This document shows positions 37,549 through 54,526 of a stretch of 64,000 nt of DNA, one piece after another (position 1 is the first letter of the stretch; the number at the start of each line of letters is the position of its first letter). The stretch covers positions 496,001-560,000 of the forward strand of contig NZ_CP052757.1 in NCBI RefSeq assembly GCF_009708005.2, given 5' to 3'. This DNA is from Cellulosimicrobium protaetiae. Its GTDB lineage: Bacteria; Actinomycetota; Actinomycetes; Actinomycetales; Cellulomonadaceae. Under the pieces are notes generated by a model that ran no database searches, was not told where the DNA came from, and saw only the letters and a list, made by a program, of their open reading frames with translations. Both the position numbers and the translations under genes were made by a program.

Positions 37549-37577
37549 TTGACCTGCTCCGGCACCGGGGCTACCCT
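37549..37577 (+). promoter_or_regulatory. Promoter of the secreted glucanase gene
   Basis: TTGACC (37549-37554) and TACCCT (37572-37577) are separated by 17 bases, one of the best promoter matches in the window. The predicted start of transcription is near 37584. Confidence 0.65.
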
Positions 37578-37601
37578 CTGCGCCCCCGTTCGGAAAGTGC
37601 G

Positions 37602-37615
37602 CCCGAAATTTCGGG
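37602..37615. promoter_or_regulatory. Putative LacI-type operator
   Basis: CCCGAAATTTCGGG is a perfect 14-bp palindrome about 20 bases downstream of the predicted transcription start and 25 bases before the gene. CGAAA-TTTCG palindromes are typical of actinobacterial LacI-family operators. The LacI gene at 39725-40741 is the obvious candidate. Confidence 0.6.
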
Positions 37616-37639
37616 GATCACGACACGAAGGAGTGCCTG

Positions 37640-39565
37640 ATGGATGCATCGACCACGCCCCACCGGAGCGATCCGCCCCGCCGCCGGGGAGCCGCGCTCG
37701 TCGCCGGCGGACTCGTCGGCGGGCTGGCGCTCGCGGCCGGTCTGGCCGCCCCCGCCGCGGCGGAGGGCGTCCCGGCGGCGAGCGTCCCCGCGAAGGCGAC
37801 GCCCGGCGTCGGGCCGTCCGGCCTGACCGGCGCGCAGCGCGCGACGCTGGAGACGTACCTGGAGGACACGTACACCTCGCTGGCCGCCATGACGGACGAG
37901 GGGACCGGCCTACCCGCGGACAACATCGAGGGCGACCTGGACCCGGCGTCGAGCAGCGCGTACACGTCGCCGACGAACATCGGCGGCTGGCTCTGGTCCA
38001 CCGTCGTGGCGCGCGACCTCGGCCTGGTGGACGACGCCGAGGCGCACGACCGCCTCGCGACGACGCTCGACACCGTCGCGTCGCTCGACCGGCACGACGC
38101 GAGCGGCATGTTCTACAACTGGTACGACCCCGCGACCGGCGACCGGGTCGAGACGTGGCCGGACGACGGGAACACGGTCCACCAGTTCCTCAGCTCGGTG
38201 GACAACGGCTGGCTGGCCGCGGGCCTGCGCGTCGTCGCGGAGGCCGAACCGAGCCTCGCCGAGGAGGCGCGCGCGATCTACGACGACATGCACTTCGGCG
38301 CGTTCTACAACCCGGAGGCGCGTCCGGACCTGGGCGTCGGGCTGCTGCGCGGCGGGTTCTGGGACGAGGAGCCGCCCGGCTGCTCGGTCGCGGGCGACTA
38401 CCTCGGCACGGGGACCGACGTCTACTACACGTGCCACCACTACGACACGACCGTCTCCGAGACGCGCATCGCGACCTACCTCGGCATCGCCGAGGGCGAG
38501 GTGCCGCCGGAGGCCTACTACGCGAGCCACCGGACCTTCCCGGACACGTGCGACTGGTCGTGGCAGGAGCAGAAGCCGATCGGCGAGACGCGTGAGTACC
38601 TGGGCGTCCCGGTGTTCGAGGGCGCGTACCGGTACCGCGACCTCGCGGTCGTGCCGGGCTGGGGCGGCTCGATGTTCGAGGCGCTCATGCCGGACATGCT
38701 GGTGCCCGAGGCCGAGTGGGGCCCGACGTCGTGGGGTGTCAACCACCCGCTCGTCGTACGCGCGCACAAGGAGCACGGCCTCGACGAGGCGGGCTACGGG
38801 GCCTGGGGCTTCTCGCCCGCGAGCAACCCCTTCGGTGGGTACGCGGAGTACGGCGTCGACGCGATCGGGCTGCGCTCGGACGGCTACCTGTCCGACGGCG
38901 AGACCGACGTCGACCTCGGGATCGAGGGCTGCCGCGAGGCGACCAACCCCGCGCCGGAGTTCGGCGACGGCGTCGTGACGCCGCACGCGACGTTCCTCGG
39001 GCTCGCGTACGACACCGACGGCGTGCTCGACAACCTGGCCCACCTCGCCGACGACCTCGGCGCCTACGGGCCGGGCGGGTTCTACGACTCCGTCGCGGTG
39101 CGGTCGGGCACGGTCGCCGAGCGCTACCTGTCGCTCGACCAGGCGATGATCGTCGCCGCGATCGGCAACGTCCTCGACGACTCGCGCCTCAAGGACTACT
39201 TCGTCGACGACGAGCTCGAGCAGCGCCTGCGCCCCCTCATGGAGGCGGAGACCTTCTCGGCCACGGCCGACCTCACGCCCGGCGTCGGGGCCGACGTCCA
39301 GGTCCAGGCGCGCTGCCTGGGCCACCGGGCGGCCGTCGCGGTGCGGGCGACGAGCACGGGTGACGGACGCGCGGACGTCACGCTCGCCACGCCCTACGGG
39401 ACGCGGTCGTTCGACGACGTCGCCCCGCACCGCAGCACCTACCAGTCGTTCGCGGCGCGCACGGCGGAGATCCCGTCCGGCACCGCGACGGTGACGGTCA
39501 CGGCCGACGACGGGTCGACGACCCAGGAGCTGTCCTACCGCTACGCGGCTGTCTCCTGCGGCTGA
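37640..39565 (+). CDS. Secreted GH144/glucoamylase-like protein, probable endo-beta-1,2-glucanase
   Basis: A 641-residue exported protein. A signal peptide (RRRGAALVAGGLVGGLALAAG, ending APAAAEG) precedes a Ser/Thr/Asp-rich start. The catalytic part fits the putative glucoamylase (PF10091)/GH144 type: NIGGWLWSTVVARDLGLV, FYNWYDPATG, PGWGGSMFEALMPDMLVPE, WGVNHPLVVRAHKEHGLD, YGAWGFSPASNPFGGYAEYG and VTPHATFLGLAYD. GH144 enzymes cut beta-1,2-glucan to sophorooligosaccharides. The last 90 residues form a separate domain shared with the protein at 53384-54526. The phosphorylase, GH1 enzyme and importer nearby support the beta-1,2-glucan assignment, though PF10091 proteins have other substrates too. 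Confidence 0.85.
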   Translation: MDASTTPHRSDPPRRRGAALVAGGLVGGLALAAGLAAPAAAEGVPAASVPAKATPGVGPSGLTGAQRATLETYLEDTYTSLAAMTDEGTGLPADNIEGDLDPASSSAYTSPTNIGGWLWSTVVARDLGLVDDAEAHDRLATTLDTVASLDRHDASGMFYNWYDPATGDRVETWPDDGNTVHQFLSSVDNGWLAAGLRVVAEAEPSLAEEARAIYDDMHFGAFYNPEARPDLGVGLLRGGFWDEEPPGCSVAGDYLGTGTDVYYTCHHYDTTVSETRIATYLGIAEGEVPPEAYYASHRTFPDTCDWSWQEQKPIGETREYLGVPVFEGAYRYRDLAVVPGWGGSMFEALMPDMLVPEAEWGPTSWGVNHPLVVRAHKEHGLDEAGYGAWGFSPASNPFGGYAEYGVDAIGLRSDGYLSDGETDVDLGIEGCREATNPAPEFGDGVVTPHATFLGLAYDTDGVLDNLAHLADDLGAYGPGGFYDSVAVRSGTVAERYLSLDQAMIVAAIGNVLDDSRLKDYFVDDELEQRLRPLMEAETFSATADLTPGVGADVQVQARCLGHRAAVAVRATSTGDGRADVTLATPYGTRSFDDVAPHRSTYQSFAARTAEIPSGTATVTVTADDGSTTQELSYRYAAVSCG

Positions 39566-39616
39566 CCGGCCGACCGGTTGACCGGCTGTCTTCTCGCCGG
39601 TCGACCGGCACACGAT

Positions 39617-39649
39617 GACGGGAGGGGCGCGGACCGCCTCCCTCCCGTC
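39617..39649. terminator. Hairpin between glucanase and lacI genes
   Basis: GACGGGAGGG (39617-39626) pairs with CCCTCCCGTC (39640-39649). It sits between two convergent genes. Confidence 0.75.
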
Positions 39650-39724
39650 CGTCGTGGTCCGAGCGTGCGCCCGGTACGTGCGTCAGGACCGTGCGTCAGG
39701 GCCCGCGACCGCGCCGGGACCGCC

Positions 39725-40741
39725 TCACGAGCGCGGGGGAGCGGTGGACTCGCGGACGACGAGGCTCGTCGCGAGCTCGGTGCGCAGCGTGTGCCCGCTC
39801 GCGGTGCGGGCGCGGTGCACGAGCCCGACGGCCGAGGCACCCATCTCGACGAGCGGCTGGCGGACTGTGGTGAGCGGCGGGTCGGTCCACGCCGCGACGG
39901 GGAGGTCGTCGAACCCGACGAGCGAGACGTCGTCCGGCACCGACAGTCCGGCCTCGCGCAGCGCCCGCAGCGCGCCGAGCGCCGTGTCGTCGCTGCACGC
40001 GAAGATCGCGGTCGGTGGCTCGTCGAGGGTGAGGAGTCGCTGCGTCCCCTCGTAGCCCGCGGGGACGCCGTACGTGCTCAGGCAGACGAGGTCGTCGTCG
40101 ACGGGGACGCCCGCCCGGATCATCGCGGCGCGGTAGCCGGCGAGCCGCGCGATCGCGTTGTCCTGCTCCGGGACGCCGGTGATCGTCGCGATGCGCCTGT
40201 GCCCGAGCGCCAGCAGGTGCGCCGTCGCCTCGAGCGCGCCCTGGAAGTTGGCGGCCCCCACGCTGAGCACGTCCTCCGGCGGGCGACGGCGCGGGTCGAC
40301 GACGACGAGCGGCACCCCGGCGTCGGCGAGCGCGGCGCGCGCCTCGACGTCGGGCACGGCGACGACGCTCACGAGCCCGTCCGTACCCCGCGCCAGCGCG
40401 TGGCGGACCCACGCGCCGCAGTCGTCGGGGTCGAGCTCCACCGACAGCACGACGTCCAGGCCCAGGCGCCGCGCCTCGGCGACCGCGCCGCGCACGACCG
40501 CCTCGGACCACGGCCCCTCGAAGTCGACGATCCGGACGTCGACGAGCCCCGTCCGCTTCGCGGTGGGGGGCCGGATCGTGTAGCCGTGGCTCCGCAAGAC
40601 CCCGGCGACGCGCTCGCGGGTCGTCGCCGCGACGTCGGGCCGTGCGTTGAGCACCTTCGACACGGTCGGCACGGACACCCCGGCCTCGGCCGCGACGACG
40701 GCGAGCGGGACGGTTCGTCCGCCGGGTGACGAGATGGTCAT
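39725..40741 (-). CDS. LacI-family transcriptional regulator
   Basis: A 338-residue repressor with the LacI helix-turn-helix and hinge (PLAVVAAEAGVSVPTVSKVL, NARPDVAATTRERV) and a periplasmic-binding-protein-like sensor. The sensor includes DGLVSVVAVPDVEAR, AIFACSDDTALGALRALREAG and VSLVGFDDLPVAAW. The ATG at 40741 has GGAGG 5 bases upstream. Its gene neighbours and the CGAAATTTCG palindrome before the glucanase suggest that it represses extracellular glucan breakdown until an oligosaccharide inducer appears. The inducer is not known. Confidence 0.92.
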   Translation of the reverse strand: MTISSPGGRTVPLAVVAAEAGVSVPTVSKVLNARPDVAATTRERVAGVLRSHGYTIRPPTAKRTGLVDVRIVDFEGPWSEAVVRGAVAEARRLGLDVVLSVELDPDDCGAWVRHALARGTDGLVSVVAVPDVEARAALADAGVPLVVVDPRRRPPEDVLSVGAANFQGALEATAHLLALGHRRIATITGVPEQDNAIARLAGYRAAMIRAGVPVDDDLVCLSTYGVPAGYEGTQRLLTLDEPPTAIFACSDDTALGALRALREAGLSVPDDVSLVGFDDLPVAAWTDPPLTTVRQPLVEMGASAVGLVHRARTASGHTLRTELATSLVVRESTAPPRS

Positions 40742-40792
40742 CCCCTCCTTCGTGACGTCCGGGCCGAGGCGGACGTCGACTGGCCGGGGCGG

Positions 40793-42937
40793 TCAGTCCA
40801 CGTAAGCCGAGACTCTGGCCCGGACGGCGTCGGAGACCACGCCGGAGCCGCCGAGGACGACGACCCGGGCGGGGGTCAGCCGGTCGAGCTCCGCCGCGAC
40901 GGACGCGGGGACGTCGTTCGGTGCGGTGAGCAGCACGGGTCCACCGCCCACTCCGGCCGCCGGCGCGCCGGCCAGGCTGTCGGGGAAGTTGAGCCCGTTC
41001 GCCACGTACACGACCGGCACGCCGGGGGTGAACGTCGCTCGTGAGACGGCGGCGGAGGTCGCGTACCGGTCGGGTCCGGACGCTCGGTCCACCCCACCCG
41101 ACGTGAACCGACCCAGCTCCTGCTCGACGGCGGCAGAGACGGAGCCCTTGCCTCCCAGGATCACGATGCGTCCGGGCCGGAGGCGGTCGAGCTCCGTCGC
41201 GACCGTCGCGGGGACCGCGGCGGGGCTCACGAGGAGGACCGGTGCGCCGTCGGCTCCTGCCGCGGGTGCGCCGGCGAGCGCGTCGGGGAACGTCAGCCCG
41301 TTGGCGACGTACGCGACAGGCACGCCGGGGTCGAACGTCTCGTGGGAGATCGCGGCGGACGTCGCGAACCGGTCGGGTCCGGCGAGCCGGGTCACGCTCC
41401 CCGCCGTCAGCCCCCGGAGCTGGGCCAGCACCGTCTCGGGCACGACGCCGCCACCGCCGAGGGCGACGATCCGTGCCGGGCGCAGCCGCCGGAGCTCGTC
41501 GGCGACGGACGCGGGGACCGCGGTGGGCGAGACGAGCAGGACGGGTGCGGCGGACGCGACGGCTGCGGGTGCTCCGGACAGCGCGTCGGGGAAGGACAGC
41601 CCGTTCGCGACGTAGGCGACGGGGACGCCAGGGTCGAACGTCGCCGCCGAGATCGCGGCGGACGTCGCGTACCGGTCGGTGCCGGAGATCCGTTCGGCCC
41701 GGAGGGCGAAGCGGTGGTAGTGCTGCGAGGCGACCTCTTGGACGTGCGCGAGCCTGCGGTACGCGAGATCCCCGGGGCACTCGGTCTGGTGGGTGTCGCG
41801 ATGGCCGAAGACACGGGGTAGCACGACCGACTGCCCCTGCTCGAACCGGCCCCCGGCGGTCTTGCTCGCCGCGGTGAACGTCCCGGTCCCGGCCGGGTCC
41901 ACGCCGTACTGGGCGAGGCGGTAGCCGATGATCTTCGCGACGCCGTCGAGCTGCGCCGCCGGCGGGGTGACGTCCGTGAAGGTGCCGACCATCGCGACGC
42001 CGACCGTCCCGGTGTTGAACCCGCCGGTGTGCGCCCCGATGAGGGCCTTCTCGATGCTGCCGTCGGCGCCCTCGTAGATGTTCCCCCAGGTGTCGACGAG
42101 GAAGTTGTAGCCGATGTCGCACCAGCCGTTCCCGTCCTGGTGGTACGCCTGGTCGTTGCGGATGGCCTGCATCGCCTGCTCGATGCTGGAGTATCCGTTC
42201 GCGTTCACCGTGTGGTGGACGACGCCGCCCTTGAGCGTCGGTGCGGCGTCCCAGGTGCACCTCGCGGGCGCGGCGCCCCACTCCTCGCGCGTGATGATCA
42301 CGGGACCTGCCGCGGCCGCGGCGCTCCGAGCGCGCGGCACGGCTCCGGCGGTGTCGGCGGTCGGCGAGGGTGCCGGTTCCGACGAGATCGTGGTGACCCG
42401 GACCCCGTCCGGGAGGGGCTCGGTCGTGCCGACGGCCGCGACCTGCACCGTGTCGGACTGGCCCAGGTAGACGACGGTCGTGGACTCGTCCCCGGTGGCG
42501 TCGCCACCGGTGTCCGGTCCGTCGGTCGCCCTGTGGACGTGCGTCCAGGGACCCCAGTTCCCGTCGGCGACCCGGGCCCGCACCTGGAGCTCCGGAACGT
42601 CCTGGTCCAGGTCCGCGGGCCAGGTCACGGCGGCGGACTGGAAGCCGCCCGCGACGGTCACCGTCCCGGTGGCGCCGATGTCGTCGGTCCGGAGGGTGGC
42701 GGGCGCCGTGCCGGCGTCCGGCAGGGCGGACGCCGCCGCGGGGAGCGGTGCCGACGGCCCGGACGCCTCGGGAGAGGGCGCGACGGACGAGGCGTGCGCG
42801 GCGGTGGGGCCGAGGGCGGCCGAGAGTGCGAGGAGCGGCACGACGCCGTACCCGAGGATCCTGCGGGGACGTGCCCGCCCTGTCCGGTGCTCCGTATCGG
42901 TCCTGGTCGGGGTCGTTGCACCAGACTGACGCACCAC
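40793..42937 (-). CDS. Secreted N-acetylmuramoyl-L-alanine amidase with three CWB2 repeats
   Basis: A 714-residue exported cell-wall hydrolase. A signal peptide (GYGVVPLLALSAALGPTAAHA) is followed by an Ala/Pro-rich region and a PGRP/amidase_2 domain: IITREEWGAAPARC, VVHHTVNANGYSS, WCDIGYNFLVDTWGNIYEG and VFGHRDTHQTECPGDLAYRRL, which carry the zinc-binding His/His/Cys set. Three cell-wall-binding type 2 repeats follow, each with ISGTDRYATSAAIS-like starts and VYVANGL-FPDALAGAPAA cores. GTG at 42937 has GAGGAGG upstream. CWB2 repeats anchor proteins to wall glycopolymers. Its place inside a glucan locus is unexplained. Confidence 0.93.
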   Translation of the reverse strand: MVRQSGATTPTRTDTEHRTGRARPRRILGYGVVPLLALSAALGPTAAHASSVAPSPEASGPSAPLPAAASALPDAGTAPATLRTDDIGATGTVTVAGGFQSAAVTWPADLDQDVPELQVRARVADGNWGPWTHVHRATDGPDTGGDATGDESTTVVYLGQSDTVQVAAVGTTEPLPDGVRVTTISSEPAPSPTADTAGAVPRARSAAAAAGPVIITREEWGAAPARCTWDAAPTLKGGVVHHTVNANGYSSIEQAMQAIRNDQAYHQDGNGWCDIGYNFLVDTWGNIYEGADGSIEKALIGAHTGGFNTGTVGVAMVGTFTDVTPPAAQLDGVAKIIGYRLAQYGVDPAGTGTFTAASKTAGGRFEQGQSVVLPRVFGHRDTHQTECPGDLAYRRLAHVQEVASQHYHRFALRAERISGTDRYATSAAISAATFDPGVPVAYVANGLSFPDALSGAPAAVASAAPVLLVSPTAVPASVADELRRLRPARIVALGGGGVVPETVLAQLRGLTAGSVTRLAGPDRFATSAAISHETFDPGVPVAYVANGLTFPDALAGAPAAGADGAPVLLVSPAAVPATVATELDRLRPGRIVILGGKGSVSAAVEQELGRFTSGGVDRASGPDRYATSAAVSRATFTPGVPVVYVANGLNFPDSLAGAPAAGVGGGPVLLTAPNDVPASVAAELDRLTPARVVVLGGSGVVSDAVRARVSAYVD

Positions 42938-43060
42938 GGGCCGCCTCCTCGGGTTCGGGGTGTCGGGTCCACGCGGACGCCGGACGATGGCCGAACCTAG
43001 CCCAGATCCTTGCCCAGGGAAAGCACCGATTCGCGAGGTTCGCGAGTCGTCATGGGCGAT

Positions 43061-43103
43061 GCGGTGCCGGGCACTCCTCGCGTGGTCGCGTGCCCGGCAC
43101 CGC
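43061..43103 (-). terminator. Hairpin after the GH1 gene
   Basis: GCGGTGCCGGGCA (43061-43073) pairs with TGCCCGGCACCGC (43091-43103) over 13 bp. It lies just past the GH1 stop and before the amidase promoter region, ending the leftward ABC-GH1 operon. Confidence 0.88.
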
Positions 43104-43126
43104 CTGTGTCGTCGGGGGCCTCCCGA

Positions 43127-44296
43127 TCAGTCGTCGAGCGAGACGGTGCCGCGCGCGACGCCGCCGAGCCAGCCGAGGCTGGGCTTGGGCGTGCGCTCGA
43201 ACGTCTCCGGGTCCCACGCGACGAGCCCGAAGGTCGGGGCGAACGAGCCCCACTCGTAGTTGTCGAGCAGCGACCAGTGGAGGTAGCCGAACAGCGGCAG
43301 CCCCGCCTCCATCTCGGCGTGCAGCGCGCGCAGGGCGTCGCGCGTGTAGTCGATGCGCCGCGCGTCGTCGGCCGTCGCGATGCCGTTCTCGGAGACCAGG
43401 ACGGGCAGGCCGGTGATCTCGTACCCGAGGCGGGCGGCCTCCGCGATGGCGGCCGGGTAGTACTCCCACCCGGTGAGCGTCTTCTCGGAGTCCTCCGGGG
43501 CGGGCAGCGGGCCGTCCACCGTGATGCGCGTGCGCGTGTAGGCCTGGACGGCGATGAAGTCGTCGCCCTTCGCGGCTTCGAGGAAGACGGTCTCGCGCGG
43601 GTAGGCGTACTCGCGCAGGACCTCCTCGGCGCCGGGGTCGGCGAAGAACTGCTGCGGCGCGACGGGCCACCCGACGGGCACCCCGACGGTCCGGACGAGC
43701 TCGACGGCACGGCGGTGCGCGGCGATGAGGTGCTCGGTCGCGACGGGGTCGGGCGCGTGCATGGTGCCCGCCTGGAGCTGCTCGGCGCCCTTGGCGGCCG
43801 TGATCATCATCGCGAGGATGTTCGGCTCGTTGATGGTGAACACGTGCGACGCGCGGTCGAGCAGCGGCAGCACGTGCTCGACGTACCGCGCGAACCGCTC
43901 GACGGACCGCGGGTCGGTCCAGCCGCCGTCCTCCGCGAACCACCGCGGCGACGTGAAGTGGTGCAGCGTGATGAGCGGCGTGACGCCGTGCTCGAGGCAG
44001 CAGTCGACCATGCGGCGGTAGTGGTCGAGCTCGGCGCCCGAGAACCTGCCCTCGGAGGGCTCGATGCGCGCCCACTCGATCGAGAACCGGTACGAGGTGA
44101 GCCCGGACTCGGCCAGCAGCCGGATGTCCTCGGCGTACCGGTGGTAGGAGTCGGCGGCGTCGCCCGACGGCTCGGCGAGGGTCGAGGCCGGGTCGACCTC
44201 GCGCGCCCACCAGTCGCTGTTGACGTTGTTGCCCTCGATCTGGTGGGCCGCCGTCGAGGCGCCCCAGACGAAGGACTCGGGGAAGGTGATCGACAC
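43127..44296 (-). CDS. GH1 beta-glucosidase
   Basis: A 389-residue cytoplasmic glycosidase, no signal peptide. It has the N-terminal signature FPESFVWGASTAAHQIEG, RFSIEWARIEPSEG, the acid/base Glu157 in TINEPN and the nucleophile Glu303 in LVSENGIA. It is shorter than the usual 440-480 residues of the family but keeps the C-terminal HWSLLDNYEWGSF. The GTG at 44296 has GAGGAGAG upstream. It follows the two permease genes directly, so it probably hydrolyses the imported oligosaccharide or the sophorose/glucose disaccharides left by the phosphorylase. Confidence 0.93.
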   Translation of the reverse strand: MSITFPESFVWGASTAAHQIEGNNVNSDWWAREVDPASTLAEPSGDAADSYHRYAEDIRLLAESGLTSYRFSIEWARIEPSEGRFSGAELDHYRRMVDCCLEHGVTPLITLHHFTSPRWFAEDGGWTDPRSVERFARYVEHVLPLLDRASHVFTINEPNILAMMITAAKGAEQLQAGTMHAPDPVATEHLIAAHRRAVELVRTVGVPVGWPVAPQQFFADPGAEEVLREYAYPRETVFLEAAKGDDFIAVQAYTRTRITVDGPLPAPEDSEKTLTGWEYYPAAIAEAARLGYEITGLPVLVSENGIATADDARRIDYTRDALRALHAEMEAGLPLFGYLHWSLLDNYEWGSFAPTFGLVAWDPETFERTPKPSLGWLGGVARGTVSLDD

Positions 44297-44319
44297 AGGC
44301 TCTCCTCGTCGGTCGCCGG

Positions 44320-45213
44320 TCACTTGATGCCGGTCATGGCGATGCCCTGCACGAAGTAGCGCTGCAGGAACAGGAACAGGATGAGGATCGGCGTCACGAC
44401 GAGCACGGACCCGGCCATGAGCAGGCCGTAGTAGGTGCCGTTCGAGCCGACCGAGTACAGCGAGAGCGCGACCGGGAGGGTGTACATGTTCTCGGTCTGC
44501 GCGACGACCAGGGGCCACAGGAAGTTGTTCCACGACCCGAGGAACGTGAGGATGCTCAGCGTCGCGAGCGGCGGCCCGCACTGGGGCAGCACGATCCGGA
44601 AGAAGACCCGGAACTCGCCCGCGCCGTCGATCCGGGCGGCCTCGATGAGCGCGTCGGGGATGCCGAGCATGAACTGCCGCATGAGGAACACGCCCAGCGG
44701 TCCGGCCAGGAAGGGCAGGATGAGCGCGGGGTAGGTGTTGACGAGCCCCATGTTGGACACGAGCACGAACATCGGCACGAGCGTGACGACGCCCGGGACC
44801 ATGAGCGTGAGCATGACCAGGGCGAACAGCACGCGCTTGCCGGGGAAGCTCATCTTCGCGAGGGCGTAGCCGACCATCGAGCAGAAGACGATGTTGCCGA
44901 GCACGACGGCGACGGCGACGACGATCGAGTTGGTGAAGTACTGCCCGTAGTTGAGCTGGGAGAGCCACCGCTCGTAGTTGTCGAGCGTGGGGTTCTGCGG
45001 CCACCACGTGATGGGGCGCTGGAGCAGCTCGCCCTGCGTCTTGAAGCTGCCGAGCGCCATCCAGATGAACGGCATGAGGGTCAGGAGCAGCCCGACGACG
45101 AGCGCCGTGTACGTGGCGCCGCGCGACCAGCGGATCGGGCGCCGCGCCCGACGGCGGGGCGCGCCCTCCGGCGTCGACGTCGCGGGGGTGGTCCGCGAGG
45201 ACGTGACGGTCAT
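44320..45213 (-). CDS. ABC sugar transporter permease (MalG-like)
   Basis: A 297-residue inner-membrane permease with six membrane segments, starting TYTALVVGLLLTLMPFIWMALGSFK. The EAA loop EAARIDGAGEFRVFFRIVLP contacts the ATPase. The ATG at 45213 is 1 base from the stop of the partner permease, indicating coupled translation. No ATPase gene is encoded nearby; a shared MsiK-type ATPase is usual for actinobacterial sugar importers. Confidence 0.94.
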   Translation of the reverse strand: MTVTSSRTTPATSTPEGAPRRRARRPIRWSRGATYTALVVGLLLTLMPFIWMALGSFKTQGELLQRPITWWPQNPTLDNYERWLSQLNYGQYFTNSIVVAVAVVLGNIVFCSMVGYALAKMSFPGKRVLFALVMLTLMVPGVVTLVPMFVLVSNMGLVNTYPALILPFLAGPLGVFLMRQFMLGIPDALIEAARIDGAGEFRVFFRIVLPQCGPPLATLSILTFLGSWNNFLWPLVVAQTENMYTLPVALSLYSVGSNGTYYGLLMAGSVLVVTPILILFLFLQRYFVQGIAMTGIK

Positions 45214-45214
45214 G

Positions 45215-46138
45215 TCAATCCTCCTTCGACCGCAGCAGGCGGAACTGGACGGCGGCCAGCGCGGCGATCAGCGCGAACAGGACGTACGCGGCCGCGGAGG
45301 CGAACGCGTAGTTGCCGTACCCGAACTGGTTGTAGACGTAGTAGCTGATGGTCAGCGTGGAGTTGACCGGGCCGCCCTTGGTCATGACGAACGGCTCCTC
45401 GAACACCTGGAGGAAGCCGACGGACAGCAGCACCGCACCGAGCAGCAGCGTGGGGCGCATGAGCGGGACCGTGATGGAGCGGAACCGGCGCCACGAGCCG
45501 GCGCCGTCGACCTCGGCCGCCTCGTAGACGTCGCGCGGGATCGCCTGGAGGCCGGCCAGGAAGATGATCATGAGCGTGCCCATGTTGCGCCACGCCGCCA
45601 TGACGATGATCGACGGCATCGCCGTCGCGCTGTCGTTGAGCCAGTCCGGGCCGTCGATGCCGACCCAGCCGAGCACGGTGTTGACGAGGCCGGAGTCCTG
45701 GAGGATGAAGCGCCACACGACGGCCACCGCGACGATCGACGTCACGACGGGCGTGTAGAAGCCGACGCGGAAGACGCTGCGGAACTTCTCGATGCCCGAG
45801 TTGAGCGCGACGGCGAGTGCGAGCCCGAGCACCATCGTCAGCGGGATGCCGACGAGGACGAAGTAGAAGGTGTTGAGCAGCGCCTTGCGGAACAGCTCGT
45901 CCTGGAAGACGCCGGTGAAGTTCTCGAGCCCGACGAAGTTCACCGCGAACGGCGTCTTGATGTCACGGATCGTGAGGTCCGAGAACGACATCCCGAACGA
46001 CGCGAGCAGCGGCCCCAGCATGAAGACCGCGAAGACTGCGACGAACGGGAGAGCGAACAGCCAGGCGACGAGCGCTTGCCGTCGCCGGTGGACGGCGCCG
46101 GCCGTACGCCGGCGCCGTCCCTCGGTGGTGGTGGTCAT
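45215..46138 (-). CDS. ABC sugar transporter permease (MalF-like)
   Basis: A 307-residue permease with six membrane segments. It starts VAWLFALPFVAVFAVFMLGPLLASF, and its EAA loop EAAEVDGAGSWRRFRSITVP is intact. It pairs with the MalG-like subunit to form the channel. It lies 15 bases after the binding-protein gene. Confidence 0.94.
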   Translation of the reverse strand: MTTTTEGRRRRTAGAVHRRRQALVAWLFALPFVAVFAVFMLGPLLASFGMSFSDLTIRDIKTPFAVNFVGLENFTGVFQDELFRKALLNTFYFVLVGIPLTMVLGLALAVALNSGIEKFRSVFRVGFYTPVVTSIVAVAVVWRFILQDSGLVNTVLGWVGIDGPDWLNDSATAMPSIIVMAAWRNMGTLMIIFLAGLQAIPRDVYEAAEVDGAGSWRRFRSITVPLMRPTLLLGAVLLSVGFLQVFEEPFVMTKGGPVNSTLTISYYVYNQFGYGNYAFASAAAYVLFALIAALAAVQFRLLRSKED

Positions 46139-46153
46139 GACTGACGGGCCCTG

Positions 46154-47449
46154 TTACCAGCCGAGCCCGAGCGTGTCGGCCTTGGCCTGGATCGCCTTGG
46201 CGGCGTCCTCGGACGTGACCTGACCGTTCGCGACCTTCTCGGCCTCGGTCTCGATCGTCGCGGAGAGCTCGTCCCAGCTCGGCACGGTCGGCGGGGCGAT
46301 CGTGTTCTCGAGCTGCTCCTGGAGCACCTGGGTGCGCGGGTTGGACGTCAGGGGCTCGTAGTCCCACGCGGTGGTGAGGGCGGGCAGGTCGCTCGTCGCG
46401 TCGAACCAGGCCTGCTGCGTCTCGGGCTGGGCGAGCCAGCGCACGAGCTTCCAGGCGCCGTCGGCGTTCTTGGCCTCGGCGAAGACGCCGAGGTGGGCGC
46501 CGCCGATGTACGAGTCGTTGTTCGCGGAGCCCGCGGGCACCGGGACGGTGGCGACGTTCTGCTCGACCCAGTCCTCGCCCTGGAGGTCGGCGAGCACGTT
46601 GACCATCCACGGGCCGGAGATGAAGGCCGGGTCGGAGCCGTCGACGAACGCGCTGTTCTGCGAGTCGCCGTAGCCGGACAGCGGCGACAGCCCGTCGGTG
46701 AAGAAGGACGCGTAGTAGTCGAGCGCGTCGACCATCGCCTGGTTGTCGAGGTCGAACGCGTCGCCCGCCTCGTTGAGGACCGAGCCGCCGGCCTGCGAGT
46801 AGAACGGCAGGATGACCTGCGTGGAGTCCTCCGCGTCGCCCATCGGGAGCTGGAGGCCGTAGGTCGAGCCGTTCGCCTGCATCGCCTGCGCGAAGGAGGT
46901 GAGCTCCTCCCACGACGTGGGCGCCTCGACCCCGGCCGCCGTGGCCAGGTCGGAGCGGTAGTACAGGACGCGGGTCTCGACGTACCACGGCACGCCGTAG
47001 TCGACGCCGTCGGCGACGGTCGAGGCCGCGGCGCCCTCGACGAAGTCGGCGCTGTCGACGAGGCCGTCCGGGACGGGCGCGAGGCCGCCGGTGGCGACCA
47101 TCGTCGGCATGAAGGACGAGCCGATCATGATCGCGTCGGGCACGGTGCCTGCCGCGACTGCGGTCTGGAACTTCGTCATGACGTCGGCCCACGGGATGGT
47201 GGTGACCTCGACGTTCGCGTCGGGGTTCTCCTCCGTGAAGCCCTGGACGAAGTCGGGCAGCTTCTCGCCCTCCTCACCCATCGCCCAGATCGTGATGTCA
47301 CCCTCCGCGGGCGCGTCGTCCACCGTCGTGGTGGACCCGGCATCGGCCTCACCACCCGTGGACTCGTCGTCCGCGCGACCGCACGCGGTCAGGGCCAGGA
47401 GTCCGACGACGCCGATGGCGACCGCCTTGCGTCCGAGCTTCATGAGCAT
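46154..47449 (-). CDS. Sugar ABC transporter substrate-binding lipoprotein
   Basis: A 431-residue lipoprotein with signal LGRKAVAIGVVGLLALTACG, where the lipobox Cys is modified. It has a family 1 solute-binding fold (DITIWAMGEEGEKLPDFVQGF, PWYVETRVLYYRSDLATAAG, VADLQGEDW region). ATG at 47449 was chosen because GAGGAGAGGA directly precedes it. ATGs at 47461 and 47443 are alternatives. First gene of the leftward binding protein-permease-permease-GH1 operon, divergent from the TetR gene. Probable ligand: beta-1,2-gluco-oligosaccharides, inferred from neighbours. Confidence 0.93.
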   Translation of the reverse strand: MLMKLGRKAVAIGVVGLLALTACGRADDESTGGEADAGSTTTVDDAPAEGDITIWAMGEEGEKLPDFVQGFTEENPDANVEVTTIPWADVMTKFQTAVAAGTVPDAIMIGSSFMPTMVATGGLAPVPDGLVDSADFVEGAAASTVADGVDYGVPWYVETRVLYYRSDLATAAGVEAPTSWEELTSFAQAMQANGSTYGLQLPMGDAEDSTQVILPFYSQAGGSVLNEAGDAFDLDNQAMVDALDYYASFFTDGLSPLSGYGDSQNSAFVDGSDPAFISGPWMVNVLADLQGEDWVEQNVATVPVPAGSANNDSYIGGAHLGVFAEAKNADGAWKLVRWLAQPETQQAWFDATSDLPALTTAWDYEPLTSNPRTQVLQEQLENTIAPPTVPSWDELSATIETEAEKVANGQVTSEDAAKAIQAKADTLGLGW

Positions 47450-47494
47450 TCCTCTCCTCATCGAGCAGTCGGCTCGTCGTGCGAGCCACTGGTG

Positions 47495-47524
47495 AAACTA
47501 CCTTAGCGTGCGCTCGGTTAGTAT
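47495..47524. promoter_or_regulatory. Divergent promoter and operator between importer and TetR genes
   Basis: The imperfect dyad TACCTTAGCG-TG-CGCTCGGTTAGTA spans 47499-47523, with the AGCG/CGCT core perfect. TAGTAT (47519-47524) on the plus strand and TAGTTT (47495-47500) on the minus strand are plausible -10 boxes overlapping it. Binding there would control both directions. Confidence 0.5.
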
Positions 47525-47585
47525 TTTCAAGCGGGGCGCCCAGGCCGTACCGTTGGCGCCGACAGACCTGGCGAAGGAGACGGTG

Positions 47586-48326
47586 ATGAACGAGAGCGAC
47601 TCCGCTGGTGGCGCCGCCACGACGGGGACGGCAGGGGGCTCGGGGAGCCGTGGGACGACGACCGCGGCCCGCGGCACGACGGCGGCCGGCCTGCCCGACC
47701 GGCGCATCGTCCGGGGCGAGCAGCGCCGCCGCGAGATCCTGCGCACCGCCGTCGAGGTGTTCGGCGAGCAGGGCTTCCGCGGCAGCTCGCTGCGCGAGAT
47801 CGCGGCGCGCGTCGGCATCTCCGAGGCCGGGCTCCTGCACCACTTCGGCAGCAAGGCGGGCCTCCTGACCGCGACGCTCGAGGAGCGCGACCGGCGCGAC
47901 CTCGTGCGGCGCACCGAGGACGAGGCCGCGGGCGCGGACCTCCTCACGACCATCCGCGACCAGGTCCGGCGCAACGCCGAGACGCCCGGGCTCGTGTCCC
48001 TGCATGTCGTCGTCGCGGCCGAGGCGACGGACGCCGCCCACCCGGCCCACGACGTCGTGCGCGACCGCTACCGCGCGCTGCGCCACCAGGACGACACGCG
48101 CTTCCAGGACGCCGTCGCGCGCGGCGAGCTGCGCCCGGAGGTCGACCCCCAGGCGATCGGCCAGCTCTTCTCCGCCGTCATGGACGGCCTCCAGCTCCAG
48201 TGGCTGCTGGACCCCGACAACGTCGACATGGTCGCCCTCTTCGACCAGTTCCTCGCGCTGCTGCGCCCCGAGGGCTCGACCCCCGCAGCGCCCGCGCACC
48301 GCACCACCGAGCAGGAGACCGCGTGA
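47586..48326 (+). CDS. TetR/AcrR-family transcriptional regulator
   Basis: A 246-residue regulator. After about 40 Gly/Thr-rich residues comes the TetR helix-turn-helix: RRREILRTAVEVFGEQGFRG, SSLREIAARVGISEAGLLHH and FGSKAGLL. The C-terminal ligand domain is helical (QLFSAVMDGLQLQWLLDPDN). ATG at 47586 has AAGGAGA 5 bases upstream; the preceding GTG is in frame too. Its stop overlaps the phosphorylase start by 4 bases (GTGA). It likely controls the phosphorylase and the divergent importer through the dyad at 47499-47523. Confidence 0.92.
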   Translation: MNESDSAGGAATTGTAGGSGSRGTTTAARGTTAAGLPDRRIVRGEQRRREILRTAVEVFGEQGFRGSSLREIAARVGISEAGLLHHFGSKAGLLTATLEERDRRDLVRRTEDEAAGADLLTTIRDQVRRNAETPGLVSLHVVVAAEATDAAHPAHDVVRDRYRALRHQDDTRFQDAVARGELRPEVDPQAIGQLFSAVMDGLQLQWLLDPDNVDMVALFDQFLALLRPEGSTPAAPAHRTTEQETA

Positions 48327-51300
48327 CCCTCACCGCCAGCCCCGCAGGCACGACCACCCTCGCGGGCGCGACGCTCGCCTCGGGCGAGCTGACCGTCGAG
48401 CTCACGGGCGGCGGCGACGTACGCGCCGTCAGCACGGGCGGCCTGCTCGTCAACCAGTACCTGCCGGGCGAGCACGACCGCATGCCCGGTGGCGTCCTGC
48501 TGCGCGCGACCCGCGCGGACGGCGCGGTCGAGGTCGCGCGACTGACCGGGTCGGCGCCCGCGGTGACGTCGGTCGAGGTCGGCACCGACCGCGTCGTGTG
48601 GTCGGGCGAGGCGCTCGGGCTCGCCACGCGCGTCGCGCTGACGCTCGACGGGCGCACGCTCGTCTGGCGCGTCGACCTCACGGCGGGCGCGAGCACGCCG
48701 GCGGACACGCGCTACGACGTCGTGCACGCGCAGGACCTCGCGCTCGCGCCGCCCGCCGCCGCGCTGTCGAGCGAGCCGTACGTGTGCCAGTACCTCCTGC
48801 ACCGCGCGATGGAGCACCCCGACGCGGGCACCGTGCTCGTCAGCCGGCAGACCATGTCGGCGCAGCCGCGCCTCCCGCTCGCCGTCGCGTTCCTCGTCGA
48901 GGGCGCGGTCGCGCACCTCACGGACTCGCTCCAGGTCTTCACGGCGCGGTCGCGGCGCGACGGCGTCCCGCACGGCCTGCTCGGGACCGTCGACTCCGCG
49001 GTGCTCCAGTACGAGTACGCGATGCCGACCCTCGTGTCCCGCCCCCTCGACCTGTCGGGCGGCGCGGCCCGCGTGCACGCGGTCACCGTCGTCGACCCCG
49101 ACGCGCCCGGACCGCTCGCCGCGCACCTCGACGAGGTGGCCGGCTGGGCGGCGGCCGCGGTCGCCGCCGCCGCCGACGAGCGCTCGACCACCCCGCTGCC
49201 GCGGACCGCGTCCGTGCTGCGTGACGCCGAGCTCCTCGCGGGCGACGAGCTCGGCGAGGCCGACCTGCTCGCGGCCGTCGGGCTCGGCGCCGACGACGTG
49301 CTGCTGCCCGAGCGTGACGCCGACGGCACGCTGCTGTCGTTCTTCACCGCGACCGGGACGCACGTCGTCGACGCGCGCAAGGACACCGTCACCGAGCGCT
49401 CGCACGGGCACGTGCTCAAGGCGGGCGACGACGTGCTGCCCACGGACCACGTGCTCTCCACGACGGCGTTCGCGCCGGGTGTCTTCGCGTCGCACGTCGT
49501 CCTCGGCAACACCACGGCGAACCGGCTCGCGACGGTGCACCGGCACCACCTCAACCTGCTGCGGAGCAGCGGCCTGCGGGTGCTCGTCGACGACGGCCGC
49601 GGACCCCGGCTCCTCGGGCTGCCCTCCGCGCTCGTCCTCGACGTCGGCGGCGTCCGCTGGGTCTACGAGACGCCGCTCGGCCGCGTCGACGTGCGGACCG
49701 TCGCGCACGACCGCGAGAACCGCATCGACGTCGACGTGCGCTGCGAGCAGCCCCTCCACGTCACCGCGACGCTCGAGCTCGACGACGAGGCCGGCGGCTG
49801 GGTCGTCGAGCACGTCGCCCCGACGTCGGACGCCGGCGAGGCCGTCGTCGTGCACCCCGTCCCGGGCGGCGACGTCGACGCGCACTACCCCGACCTGCGG
49901 TACGTCGTGTCGTCGAGCGCGCCCGTCGTGCTCGACCCCGAGAGCTCCGCGGGCGCCCCCGCCGGGACCGCGCACCGCCTCACGAGCGCGACCGACACCG
50001 GCGCGCTCCGGCTCGCGATCACCGGCTCGCTGGACGGGGCCGACGCCGCGCTCGCGCTCGCCGGGTCGACCCACGACCCGCTCGCCGACCTCGACGCGAC
50101 GCTCGCGGGCCACCTCGCGACCGTCCGCGGGGTCGTGCGCGGCCTGCGGTTCGCGCCCCACGCGGAGCTCGAGACGCAGGAGCTCGACCTCCTCGTGCCC
50201 TGGTACGCCCACGACGCCCTGATCCACTTCCTCGTCCCGCACGGGCTCGAGCAGTACTCGGGCGCGGCGTGGGGCACGCGCGACGTGTGCCAGGGACCGT
50301 TCGAGCTCGCGCTCGCGGGCGGTCGGTACGAGGTCGCGCGGGCGATCGTGCTGCGCGTCCTCGCGCACCAGCACACGTGGGGCGAGTTCCCGCAGTGGTT
50401 CATGTTCGACGCGTACGGCGAGCGCTACAACGACTCCTCGCACGGCGACGTCGTGGTCTGGCCGCTGTTCGCGCTCGCCCAGTACCTCGACGCGAGCGGC
50501 GACCTCGCGATGCTCGACGAGCCGGTCCCGTTCTGGGACCACGCGCACCGGCGCCCGGCCGCGTCCGGGCCCGACGCCGCGGCGACCGTGCGCGACCACG
50601 TCGCGCGGCTGCTCGACCACCTCGACCGCGACCGCCTGCCCGGTACGGCGCTGCCCGCGTACGGCGAGGGCGACTGGGACGACACGCTCCAGCCGGCCGA
50701 CCCGCGGATGCGCACGGACCTCGCGTCGACCTGGACGTCCGCGCTGCTCGTGCAGGCCGCCGCGCTGCTCGCGCGCACCACGTCCGGCGGCGACCCCGCG
50801 CTCTCGGAGCGCGCCGGGGCCCTGGCCGCCGAGGTGCGTGCGGACCTGCGCGAGCGCGCGCTCGTCGACGGCGTCCTGGCCGGGTACGTGCGCCACGGGG
50901 CCGACGGCGACGAGCTCGTCATCCACCCGTCCGACACCGTGTCCGGGATGCGCTACCGCCTCATCCCCATGACGCAGTCGATCATCGCGGGCATCCTCAC
51001 GCCGCAGGAGGCGGAGGACCACGAGCGCCTCGTGGTCGAGCACCTCCACTTCCCCGACGGCGTGCGCCTCATGGACCACCCCGCCGCGTTCGACGAGGGC
51101 GTCCCGCACACGTTCCTGCGGGCCGAGCAGGCGGCGAACGTCGGCCGCGAGATCGGCCTCATGTACGTGCACGCGCACATCCGCTACGTCGAGGCGCTCG
51201 CGGCCCTGGGCCGCGGCCGCGCGCTCGACGAGCTCCTGCGCATCAGCCCGGTCGACCTCGGCCGCCGCCTCGCGCACGCCGCGCCCCGGCAGCGCAACGC

Positions 51301-51745
51301 GTACTTCTCGTCGAGCGACGCCGACTTCCCGGACCGCCAGAGCTTCGCCCGCGACTTCGACCGGCTGCGCGACGGGAGCGTGGGAGTGCGCGGCGGGTGG
51401 CGCGTGTACTCGAGCGGCCCCGGGATCTACCTGCGCCAGCTGGTCCAGGGCGTGCTCGGGCTCACGGAGCAGCCCGGGACCCTCGTCGTCGACCCCGTGC
51501 TGCCCGCGACGGCCGACGGGCTCGCCGTCGACCTCGAGCTCGCCGGGCGGACGCGCCGCGTCGTCTACCGGGTCGCCGAGCCAGGCCAGGGCGTCCGGGT
51601 GCGCGCGGGGGCCGACCTCGGCGCCCTCGTCGAACTCTCCACGACTCCGCGGGTGGGCGACTACCGCGAGCGCGGCGTCGTCGTCGCGACGCGCGACCTC
51701 GGCGACGCAGGGCTCGTCGAGATCTCCGTGCCCGCAGGGTCGTAG
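48323..51745 (+). CDS. GH94-type phosphorylase, probable 1,2-beta-oligoglucan phosphorylase
   Basis: A 1140-residue cytoplasmic protein without a signal peptide. The N-terminal half is a beta-sandwich with VCQYLLHRAMEHPDAGTVLV and DARKDTVTERSHGHVLKAGD. The (alpha/alpha)6 barrel carries DALIHFLVPHGLEQYSG and AAWGTRDVCQGPFELALAG, where the Asp matches the GH94 acid position. QWFMFDAYGERYNDSSHGDVV and AYGEGDWDDTLQP follow. The length and WGTRDVCQGP motif fit sophorooligosaccharide phosphorylases (SOGP), which release glucose 1-phosphate from beta-1,2-glucans. Other GH94 specificities are possible. It is translationally coupled to the TetR gene. Confidence 0.85.
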   Translation: MTLTASPAGTTTLAGATLASGELTVELTGGGDVRAVSTGGLLVNQYLPGEHDRMPGGVLLRATRADGAVEVARLTGSAPAVTSVEVGTDRVVWSGEALGLATRVALTLDGRTLVWRVDLTAGASTPADTRYDVVHAQDLALAPPAAALSSEPYVCQYLLHRAMEHPDAGTVLVSRQTMSAQPRLPLAVAFLVEGAVAHLTDSLQVFTARSRRDGVPHGLLGTVDSAVLQYEYAMPTLVSRPLDLSGGAARVHAVTVVDPDAPGPLAAHLDEVAGWAAAAVAAAADERSTTPLPRTASVLRDAELLAGDELGEADLLAAVGLGADDVLLPERDADGTLLSFFTATGTHVVDARKDTVTERSHGHVLKAGDDVLPTDHVLSTTAFAPGVFASHVVLGNTTANRLATVHRHHLNLLRSSGLRVLVDDGRGPRLLGLPSALVLDVGGVRWVYETPLGRVDVRTVAHDRENRIDVDVRCEQPLHVTATLELDDEAGGWVVEHVAPTSDAGEAVVVHPVPGGDVDAHYPDLRYVVSSSAPVVLDPESSAGAPAGTAHRLTSATDTGALRLAITGSLDGADAALALAGSTHDPLADLDATLAGHLATVRGVVRGLRFAPHAELETQELDLLVPWYAHDALIHFLVPHGLEQYSGAAWGTRDVCQGPFELALAGGRYEVARAIVLRVLAHQHTWGEFPQWFMFDAYGERYNDSSHGDVVVWPLFALAQYLDASGDLAMLDEPVPFWDHAHRRPAASGPDAAATVRDHVARLLDHLDRDRLPGTALPAYGEGDWDDTLQPADPRMRTDLASTWTSALLVQAAALLARTTSGGDPALSERAGALAAEVRADLRERALVDGVLAGYVRHGADGDELVIHPSDTVSGMRYRLIPMTQSIIAGILTPQEAEDHERLVVEHLHFPDGVRLMDHPAAFDEGVPHTFLRAEQAANVGREIGLMYVHAHIRYVEALAALGRGRALDELLRISPVDLGRRLAHAAPRQRNAYFSSSDADFPDRQSFARDFDRLRDGSVGVRGGWRVYSSGPGIYLRQLVQGVLGLTEQPGTLVVDPVLPATADGLAVDLELAGRTRRVVYRVAEPGQGVRVRAGADLGALVELSTTPRVGDYRERGVVVATRDLGDAGLVEISVPAGS

Positions 51746-53383: not shown

Positions 53384-54526
53384 TCAGGCGCAGTCGACGC
53401 CCGCGTACGGGGTCTCGACGACGGCGGGGCCGTGGCCGGTCGCTACGGTCAGCGTGGCCGTGCCCGGCTCGACGGACGCGGACCGCGTGCTGAACGACTG
53501 GTAGGCGTTGCGGCCTGCCGGGACGCCGGTGAACGAGCGCTCGCCCGCGGGCGTGCCGAGGGTGAGGTCGACGGGCTCCTCCCCGACGTTCAGCGCGCGC
53601 ACCGCGACGTGAGCCGTCCCGGCCAGGCACCGCGCATCGACCTCGACGTGGACGGGCGGGAGCTCCCGGACCCGGACGTCGCGGTACGACACGACGTCCG
53701 GTGCCGAGCCGTGGGCCTGGAGCCCGACGTACCCGACGAGGCCGCGGGTGCTCGAGTCCGGGTCGAGCGGGCGGCCGGGGAACGGGACGCCGGGCAGGTT
53801 CTCGTACTCGTTGATGACGACCCCGTCGCGGATCACCGTGTAGTGCTGCCCGACGACGCGGACCTCCAGCTCGTTCCACGTGCCCTTCGCGGTGGGCATC
53901 GCACGGTCGAGGCCGATGTCCGCGAAGCCGTAGACCGACCCGGTCTTGCGGGGGTCGTTCGACCCGCCCTCGGGGGAGTCGTTGACCTGGATCTCGTGCC
54001 CGCAGTTGACCGCGATCCACGAGAGGTTGCCCGTCTCGTTGCCGTTGAACGTCGTCGGGCACCCCTCGACGGGTCCGGACAGGTCGGGGAAGCGCACCTG
54101 CACGCCGCTGTTGGCGCGCGCGTCCCCGGGCGCGTCGTCGCGGAACTGCACGACGAGCGAGAAGTCGCCGTACTGGCGCACCGGGTACCAGAGCGTGCCG
54201 AACCCGCCGCCCGCGCCCGCCCGGGAGCGGATCGTCCCGTCGTCGAGCAGGTCGAACCCGCCGTCGCCCGCGTACTCCCAGGCCTCGAACGACTCCGCGG
54301 TCCCGTCGAAGATCACGTCGTAGGTGTCGTCGGAGGCCGCGGTGGCGGCGGCCTCGGGCCCGGCGGCCTTCGGTGCGACGGACTCCGGTGCGACGGTCTC
54401 CGATACCGACGGCACGACGGCCGCGGCCGGCGCCGCCAGCACGACCCCGACGACGAGCGCGGTCGCCCCGGCGAGACGGGCGCGGTGCGCCCGGCGGCGG
54501 GCGGACGGACGGGTCGTGCTCGACAT
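53384..54526 (-). CDS. Secreted DUF1080 (3-keto-disaccharide hydrolase-like) protein
   Basis: A 380-residue exported protein: signal ARLAGATALVVGVVLAAPAAA, Ala/Pro/Val-rich stretch, then a laminin-G-like DUF1080 fold (DVIFDGTAESFEAWEYAG, GFGTLWYPVRQYGDFSLVVQF, NSGVQVRFPDL, GTWNELEVRVVGQHYTVIRDG, GLVGYVGLQAHG). DUF1080 proteins include 3-keto-glucoside hydrolases and glycan-binding proteins. The last 85 residues are a distinct Cys-bracketed domain clearly related to the end of the GH144 protein. ATG at 54526 has GAGGGAG upstream. A role in glycan processing outside the cell is likely, but the substrate is unknown. Confidence 0.87.
   Translation of the reverse strand: MSSTTRPSARRRAHRARLAGATALVVGVVLAAPAAAVVPSVSETVAPESVAPKAAGPEAAATAASDDTYDVIFDGTAESFEAWEYAGDGGFDLLDDGTIRSRAGAGGGFGTLWYPVRQYGDFSLVVQFRDDAPGDARANSGVQVRFPDLSGPVEGCPTTFNGNETGNLSWIAVNCGHEIQVNDSPEGGSNDPRKTGSVYGFADIGLDRAMPTAKGTWNELEVRVVGQHYTVIRDGVVINEYENLPGVPFPGRPLDPDSSTRGLVGYVGLQAHGSAPDVVSYRDVRVRELPPVHVEVDARCLAGTAHVAVRALNVGEEPVDLTLGTPAGERSFTGVPAGRNAYQSFSTRSASVEPGTATLTVATGHGPAVVETPYAGVDCA

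What the first reader, a model, noticed from the sequence alone, without database searches (positions are those of the whole stretch)
37549..51745. Probable beta-1,2-glucan (sophorooligosaccharide) utilisation locus with two regulators
A secreted GH144-like protein, a binding-protein-dependent importer, a cytoplasmic GH1 and a GH94 enzyme with SOGP-like motif form a complete path from polymer to glucose 1-phosphate and glucose. LacI would control the outer step and TetR the inner steps. A beta-1,2-glucan pathway with this TetR-SOGP fusion of expression in an actinomycete is, as far as I know, not described.
Basis: partly seen in the sequence, partly recalled or inferred. Interest (0 to 1): 0.7.

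Follow-up and report, generated by a model that had tools for sequence, protein, structure and literature searches.

The report
Two-regulator beta-1,2-glucan utilisation locus
A soil-type actinomycete carries a full set of genes for eating the unusual sugar polymer beta-1,2-glucan; the enzymes are of kinds already known, but here they appear to be switched by two separate repressors, each with its own DNA site.

Summary
The host is Cellulosimicrobium-like. The secreted enzyme (37640-39565) fits GH193 (beta-1,2-glucanases) better than GH144. Among solved proteins the binding protein is closest to Listeria Lin1841, the GH1 to Streptomyces griseus SGR_2426, and the GH94 to LpSOGP (13 of 13 checked active-site residues identical). 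That such a pathway is undescribed in actinomycetes is out of date: a GH193 + ABC + GH1 cluster in S. griseus was published in 2025.

The least described part is regulation. A LacI-type site (CGAAATTTCG, 37604-37613) occurs once in the 4.78 Mb genome, just upstream of the glucanase. It recurs beside these genes in most relatives with this LacI, once found blind. A different dyad (47497-47522), also unique, lies between the importer operon and the tetR-SOGP operon; its core is kept across two families, and tetR and SOGP overlap by 4 nt. Binding-protein trees suggest two modules, each with its repressor, were joined. Regulation and enzyme activities are inferred, not shown. An amidase gene in the middle looks unrelated. 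Verdict: new variant of a known kind.

The parts
37549..37577 (+). putative promoter of the glucanase gene (TTGACC, 17 bp, TACCCT)
   Evidence: read by eye; similar hexamers precede the box in many of the relatives printed (not counted); generic scan negative
37589..37613 (.). putative LacI operator: half-site TTCGGAAA plus palindrome CGAAATTTCG (37604-37613)
37640..39565 (+). putative secreted endo-beta-1,2-glucanase, GH193-like; signal peptide by eye; extra C-terminal domain about 533-641
   Evidence: family description from PMC12102758
39725..40741 (-). LacI-family repressor, putative regulator of the glucanase
43127..44296 (-). GH1 beta-glucosidase, SGR_2426-like (sophorose to glucose)
   Evidence: residues of PMC12369401 (Q229, W291 kept; M171 to I) read off the alignment
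44320..45213 (-). ABC sugar transporter permease B
45215..46138 (-). ABC sugar transporter permease A
46154..47455 (-). sugar-binding protein with a lipobox-like start (by eye), nearest solved chain Lin1841
   Evidence: start codon judged from relatives
47497..47522 (.). putative TetR operator, imperfect 26-bp dyad between the two divergent operons
47586..48326 (+). TetR-family repressor, overlaps the next gene by 4 nt
48323..51745 (+). [quoted passage not shown]

Best explanation
This is a beta-1,2-glucan utilisation locus. A secreted GH193-like endo-glucanase cuts the polymer into sophoro-oligosaccharides. A binding-protein-dependent ABC importer takes them in, using an ATPase encoded elsewhere. 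SOGP phosphorolyses chains of three or more units down to sophorose, giving glucose 1-phosphate. The GH1 enzyme splits sophorose (and short chains) to glucose. A LacI repressor acts at one site just downstream of the glucanase promoter and controls the outer step. A TetR repressor acts at one dyad between the importer-GH1 operon and its own tetR-SOGP operon and controls uptake and intracellular breakdown. The two repressors are there because two modules with separate histories were joined. Shown by sequence: gene content, closest relatives, key residues, conservation of the two sites, tree. Inferred: activities, secretion, which protein binds which site, inducers (probably sophorose or sophoro-oligosaccharides), the joining of modules.
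For: SOGP_N, SOGP_2nd and GH94 domains; best solved relative LpSOGP 5h3z at 9.3e-167; 13 of 13 LpSOGP active-site residues checked are identical, including the acid D760 = D787 (residues from passages of PMC5309861). Binding protein: Lin1841 first of 225 solved sequences, 4.1e-58. GH1: SGR_2426 first of 194, 5.6e-137, with Q229 and W291 kept. Outer enzyme: Pfam Glycoamylase + DUF3131, cyclic glucan synthase domains first, D188-E274 spacing 86 equal to SkSGL D160-E246. LacI box: once in the genome; upstream of the glucanase in 14 of 19 loci with LacI at least 60% identical versus 3 of 88 without (exceptions under Tried and rejected); once per genome in 6 of 6 genomes, each time next to these genes; four of the other five were already known to carry it, G074 was blind. 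TetR box: 1 site in the genome at up to 3 mismatches; found in 7 of 121 sequences scanned, in all 7 between SBP and TetR; once per genome in 5 of 5 genomes, chosen because they carry it. SBP tree: TetR-box and LacI-box proteins in separate 100/100 groups. Three genomes with the TetR-SOGP-importer-GH1 module (G231, G273, G212) have no glucanase match at 1e-20, so that module exists alone.
Against: No activity, binding or expression data. The LacI core is short: with up to 1 mismatch a 64 kb window holds 0.41 by chance, so its weight rests on conservation. In G077 the LacI is only 47% identical and the exact box is absent. The closest PDB matches to the outer enzyme are transglycosylase-type domains, not hydrolases. 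That G231, G273 and G212 have the inner module without a glucanase match also fits a small-glucoside role. The TetR-SOGP pairing is not general: of 20 SOGP stretches fetched (of 23 other genomes with SOGP), 4 have this TetR beside it. In G212 the TetR box has 5 mismatches over 24 positions, and tetR and SOGP do not overlap. A 66% identical TetR in G091 has only part of the box upstream. No promoter or terminator was found by generic scan.
Confidence: 0.8

Rival explanations
1. The locus serves sophorosides or other beta-1,2-linked glucosides (plant or glycolipid), and the secreted enzyme trims or remodels them, polymer being incidental.
For: GH1 and SOGP act on short chains (papers cited); G231, G273 and G212 have importer, GH1, SOGP and TetR but no glucanase match in the genome at 1e-20 (G212 by its absence from the list of 38 matches); PMC12369401 discussion raises alkylated sophoro-oligosaccharides.
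Against: A GH193-like enzyme with its own conserved upstream site, and recurrent clustering of glucanase with importer, GH1 or SOGP.
Confidence: 0.13
2. The outer enzyme is a GH189-type glucanotransferase that cyclises or remodels beta-1,2-glucan, so the locus belongs to synthesis or remodelling rather than degradation.
For: Cyclic glucan synthase domains are the best PDB hits.
Against: D-to-E spacing is 86 as in SkSGL against about 196 in the synthase hit (positions read off; the second segment is itself weak, 0.8 bits); PMC12102758 gives extra helices between alpha4 and alpha5 as a GH189 mark; no other synthase domain in the protein; importer and SOGP look catabolic.
Confidence: 0.05
3. One regulator does everything: LacI controls all three transcripts and TetR answers to an unrelated signal.
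For: In Oerskovia (L106) and G027, G044, G074 a close LacI (78-86%) has a box at the importer operon.
Against: No LacI box with up to 1 mismatch elsewhere in the window; the importer and tetR-SOGP operons here share a different conserved dyad.
Confidence: 0.08

Closest known systems
Streptomyces griseus SGR_2422-2427 cluster (PMC12369401; abstract, introduction, part 1 of the discussion and passages seen)
   Same: Lin1841-like importer, SGR_2426-type GH1, GH193 protein
   Different: the text I saw names no SOGP in S. griseus, and TetR has 0 occurrences in the main text; here SOGP is coupled to TetR and the glucanase has its own LacI-type site
Listeria innocua lin1838-lin1843 (PMC3960220, one passage seen)
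   Same: LacI gene, SOGP, ABC importer with Lin1841; same logic of phosphorolysis plus beta-glucosidase
   Different: GH3 instead of GH1; no glucanase and no TetR named in that passage
GH193 SkSGL of Sanguibacter keddieii (PMC12102758; abstract, sections 2.1, 2.2, 2.4, 2.5, part 1 of the discussion and passages seen)
   Same: spacing of the two proposed catalytic residues; Gram-positive, signal peptide; a Sanguibacter inulinus homologue is 70% identical in its best segment
   Different: SkSGL has 724 residues with an Ig-like domain, the window protein 641 with an unnamed C-terminal domain; whether these are alike is untested, and the SkSGL sequence was not in hand
BgrT TetR-family beta-glucoside regulators of bifidobacteria (PMC4746261, abstract start and passages seen)
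   Same: TetR protein beside glycosidases, a phosphorylase and transporters; predicted 18-22 nt palindromes
   Different: membership of our TetR in that branch untested; 'sophoro' has 0 occurrences in its main text

Membership tests
[quoted passage not shown]
   PF21958 4.7e-47, PF21250 6.8e-33, PF17167 4.9e-09
SOGP (GH94, 1,2-beta-oligoglucan phosphorylase) | LpSOGP subsite, phosphate and acid residues (Q621 R630 D631 W758 D760 R907 E917 Y922 H924 Y1004 S1005 S1006 Y141) | tested here: met
   13 of 13 identical with a one-residue chain offset; other residues of the site, if named elsewhere in the paper, were not checked
SOGP (GH94, 1,2-beta-oligoglucan phosphorylase) | phosphorolysis of Sop3 and longer | not testable with these tools
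   needs enzyme assay
GH193 | proposed acid and base with SkSGL spacing (D160, E246: 86 apart), plus clan F and Y | tested here: met
   D188 and E274, 86 apart; invariant with F346 and Y404 in 13 of 13 aligned; the S. inulinus homologue has the same residues, 86 apart. F and Y assigned by position, not by structure
GH193 | grouping with SkSGL in a tree | not tested
   SkSGL sequence not obtained; structure job had not finished at the last poll
GH144 | closest to GH144 enzymes by sequence | tested here: not met
   5gzh only 0.0021, against 1.7e-17 for GH189 8wy1 and 4.3e-21 for 8rf9
GH189 | insertion between alpha4 and alpha5 | tested here: inconclusive
   86 against about 196 residues between the aligned D and E, which speaks against GH189, but the second segment of that alignment is weak (0.8 bits) and no structure was obtained
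SGR_2426-type GH1 | Q229, W291, hydrophobic 171 at subsite +1 | tested here: met
   Q, W, I at the aligned places, read by eye
Lin1841-type sophoro-oligosaccharide binding protein | closest solved homologue is Lin1841 | tested here: met
   best of 225 solved sequences; ligand residues not compared
BgrT (TetR) regulators | falls in the BgrT branch | not tested
   no BgrT sequences in hand

The most novel reading that the evidence does not exclude
A two-key beta-1,2-glucan system: cutting outside the cell and uptake plus phosphorolysis inside it are under two unrelated repressors (LacI and TetR), each with a single operator in the whole genome. It was formed by joining a LacI-glucanase module, as in Cellulomonas and Oerskovia, with a TetR-SOGP-importer-GH1 module that also exists alone, and the TetR is a new kind of sophoro-oligosaccharide sensor.
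Probability: 0.5. Interest if true: 0.5.

Novelty: new variant of a known kind. Interest (0 to 1): 0.4.

Why it matters
It turns a guess about an obscure sugar into testable parts: two defined candidate operators, two repressors, and enzymes and a binding protein with named residues. Beta-1,2-glucans are made by rhizobia and other bacteria that interact with hosts (PMC12369401, introduction), so knowing which actinomycetes eat them, and how they sense them, bears on that exchange. If confirmed, single-site repressors with a known sugar response could also serve as expression switches in actinomycetes.

Tried and rejected
GH144 label: rejected on sequence. GH189: thought unlikely on spacing, but the alignment is weak. 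Amidase 40793-42937 as part of the system: rejected, because tblastn found no homologue in L100 and L102, where LacI and GH1 lie next to each other. A LacI site at the importer operon: not found. The window's TetR in L067-L069, which hold SOGP and GH1: none at E 1e-4. Generic promoter and terminator scan: nothing. A looser LacI pattern gave 9 rows at 2-3 mismatches; the only one with 2 is the site at 37589, and one of those with 3 is the same palindrome on the other strand. NCBIfam gave no model above its cut-off for the nine proteins sent. The structure prediction of the glucanase had not finished at polls 82, 84, 86, 87, 91, 92, 95 and 97 and was given up; one search was a script that only waited.

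Counts to read with care. Fetched: 20 of the 23 other genomes with SOGP (G011, G030, G090 left out) and, with those, 26 of the 37 other genomes with a glucanase. The named scan kept the best 80 of 472. The five misses of the 19 are L094 and L098 (box at the importer operon instead), L112 and L115 (only about 200 bases of upstream stretch), L109 (1 mismatch). The three hits of the 88 are contigs that end soon after the glucanase (L110, L114, L116). Fourteen of the 121 sequences had no glucanase at 40% or more and are in neither count.
Full report
What was checked. The region holds, in order: argS (+), a probably secreted glucanase (+), LacI (-), an amidase with three CWB2 stretches (-), GH1 (-), two ABC permeases (-), a binding protein (-), TetR (+), GH94 (+). 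The window lies at 496001-560000 of contig 1 of a 4.78 Mb genome; its nearest named relatives in the public genome scan are Cellulosimicrobium (C. funkei U11, 97% over the whole glucanase).

The enzymes. The GH94 protein has all three SOGP/GH94 Pfam domains and matches LpSOGP over both halves at 9.3e-167. Twelve catalytic-domain residues named in passages of PMC5309861 plus Y141 are identical in the window protein once a one-residue chain offset is allowed, among them the general acid D760 = D787. LpSOGP acts on three or more units, so sophorose should be left over. The GH1 protein would fill that gap: its best solved relative is SGR_2426 of S. griseus, reported as specific for beta-1,2-gluco-oligosaccharides (PMC12369401, abstract, introduction and part 1 of the discussion). 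In the alignment Q229 and W291 are kept and M171 is isoleucine, the pattern which the paper gives for homologues. The binding protein ranks Lin1841 first among 225 solved sequences. None of the locus genes scanned is an ABC ATPase; two proteins with the OB_MalK domain of such ATPases lie elsewhere in the genome, as expected of importers that share an ATPase (general knowledge).

The outer enzyme. Pfam gives Glycoamylase and DUF3131. Against the PDB the cyclic glucan synthases and the TiCGS domain (GH189) come first, GH144 far behind. PMC12102758 (abstract, sections 2.1, 2.2, 2.4, 2.5, part 1 of the discussion) describes GH193, close to GH189 and mainly in Gram-positive bacteria, with SkSGL E246 and D160 as proposed acid and base. 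The window protein has D188 and E274, the same 86 apart, and both, with F346 and Y404, are invariant in 13 of 13 aligned homologues. A Sanguibacter inulinus homologue also has them 86 apart. In the synthase hit the aligned D and E are about 196 apart (positions read off; the second segment scores only 0.8 bits), which fits the extra helices reported for GH189. I therefore call it GH193-like. The first ~40 residues look like a signal peptide by eye. The C-terminal ~100 residues also end two GH43 and one GH26 protein of the same genome.

How common it is. In 297 genomes sampled from the order, own genome included, SOGP relatives occur in 24 and glucanase relatives in 38 at 1e-20. In 40 fetched stretches the glucanase, importer, GH1 and SOGP recur in many combinations, and so do they, SOGP more rarely, in the best 80 of 472 named loci. 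So parts of the pathway are widespread in these actinobacteria and not peculiar to this genome. G231 and G273 have the TetR-SOGP-importer-GH1 module and no glucanase match at 1e-20; G212 is likewise missing from the list of matches.

LacI. Upstream of the glucanase there is a palindrome CGAAATTTCG (37604-37613), preceded by a half-site, just downstream of a TTGACC-17-TACCCT pair. It occurs once in the genome. Across 121 sequences, of which 107 have a glucanase, it lies upstream of the glucanase in 14 of 19 loci with a LacI at least 60% identical and in 3 of 88 others; misses, repeats and exceptions are given under Tried and rejected. In Oerskovia (L106) it lies before both the glucanase and the binding-protein gene. 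In six whole genomes it occurs exactly once each; four of the five other than the window's were picked knowing that they carry it. In the fifth, G074, the site lay outside anything fetched, and when read proved to lie between a 78% identical LacI and the binding-protein gene: a blind success. With one mismatch allowed such a site is not rare in 64 kb (mean 0.41), so the case rests on conservation.

TetR. The divergent region between binding protein and TetR carries ACTAACCGAGCGCACGCTAAGGTAGT (47497-47522), an imperfect dyad (9 of 13 pairs by my count). It is unique in the genome at up to 3 mismatches over its inner 24 bases, and its 15-base core occurs once in each of 5 genomes that carry it. 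Of 121 sequences, 7 carry it within 5 mismatches, all in this position. In six aligned intergenic regions from two families the core is invariant while the mean column identity is 67%. TetR and SOGP overlap by GTGA in 6 of 7 such loci. The pairing is not general: of 20 fetched SOGP stretches, 4 (L060-L063) have this TetR beside it. A 66% identical TetR in G091 sits by a glucanase and has GCGCACGCTA before it; in that genome matches at up to 3 mismatches number 359, so this is no proof.

Two modules. In a tree of 48 binding proteins, the seven with the TetR box form one 100/100 side and the three with the LacI box another. The window's LacI is 86% identical to that of Oerskovia, yet the binding proteins are only 42% identical. 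The simplest reading is that a LacI-glucanase module and a TetR-SOGP-importer-GH1 module came together, each keeping its repressor. That is inference.

Compared with print. Listeria has LacI, SOGP, GH3 and the importer (PMC3960220, one passage). S. griseus has GH193, importer, GH1 (PMC12369401). TetR-family beta-glucoside regulators, BgrT, were predicted in bifidobacteria in 2016 (PMC4746261, passages). I found no paper on a TetR- and LacI-controlled beta-1,2-glucan locus in searches, which cover only the open library; of many listed papers I saw only titles and abstract starts, and the S. griseus Figure 6 and supplements were not seen and might show more.

Judgement. Pathway: strongly supported by sequence. 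Regulatory split: well supported by comparison, unproven. Novelty lies in the control and the combination, not in the enzymes. On checking, I added the genomes with the inner module but no glucanase match and the SOGP loci without this TetR, moved the GH189 test to inconclusive, and shifted the confidences slightly for that.

Noticed in passing
window 32908-35499: DnaB helicase gene with a LAGLIDADG/homing-endonuclease-like stretch between its DnaB parts, probably an intein.
   Followed up: no
window 40793-42937; L101, L103, L104, L105: The gap between LacI and GH1 may be an insertion spot: amidase with CWB2 repeats here, no gene in C. funkei L100 and L102, about 8 kb in L101, L104 and L105, and no GH1 within the stretch in L103; in L105 it encodes a sugar ABC transporter with a sugar-bind (SorC-type) regulator, SIS protein and transaldolase-like gene.
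   Followed up: partly
window 39236-39565 (protein residues 533-641): The glucanase's C-terminal domain, without a Pfam name, also ends two GH43 proteins and one GH26 protein in the same genome; maybe an uncharacterised surface or sugar-binding module.
   Followed up: partly
window 53384-58880: A 3-keto-disaccharide hydrolase-domain protein lies next to a second sugar ABC transporter; a 71% match to the former starts about 20 bases after SOGP in C. funkei JCM 14302 (L102), cut by the end of the stretch.
   Followed up: no
   Followed up: no
L117-L177, Microbacterium loci: A different TetR (40-47% identical) lies near the glucanase in 36 of 37 loci titled Microbacterium (not L155); two unnamed loci share AACAC-A/G-TGTTAGG before the glucanase.
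   Followed up: no
window 59644-59668: A 3-mismatch match to the extended LacI pattern before the SIS-domain gene at 59822; probably chance.
   Followed up: no
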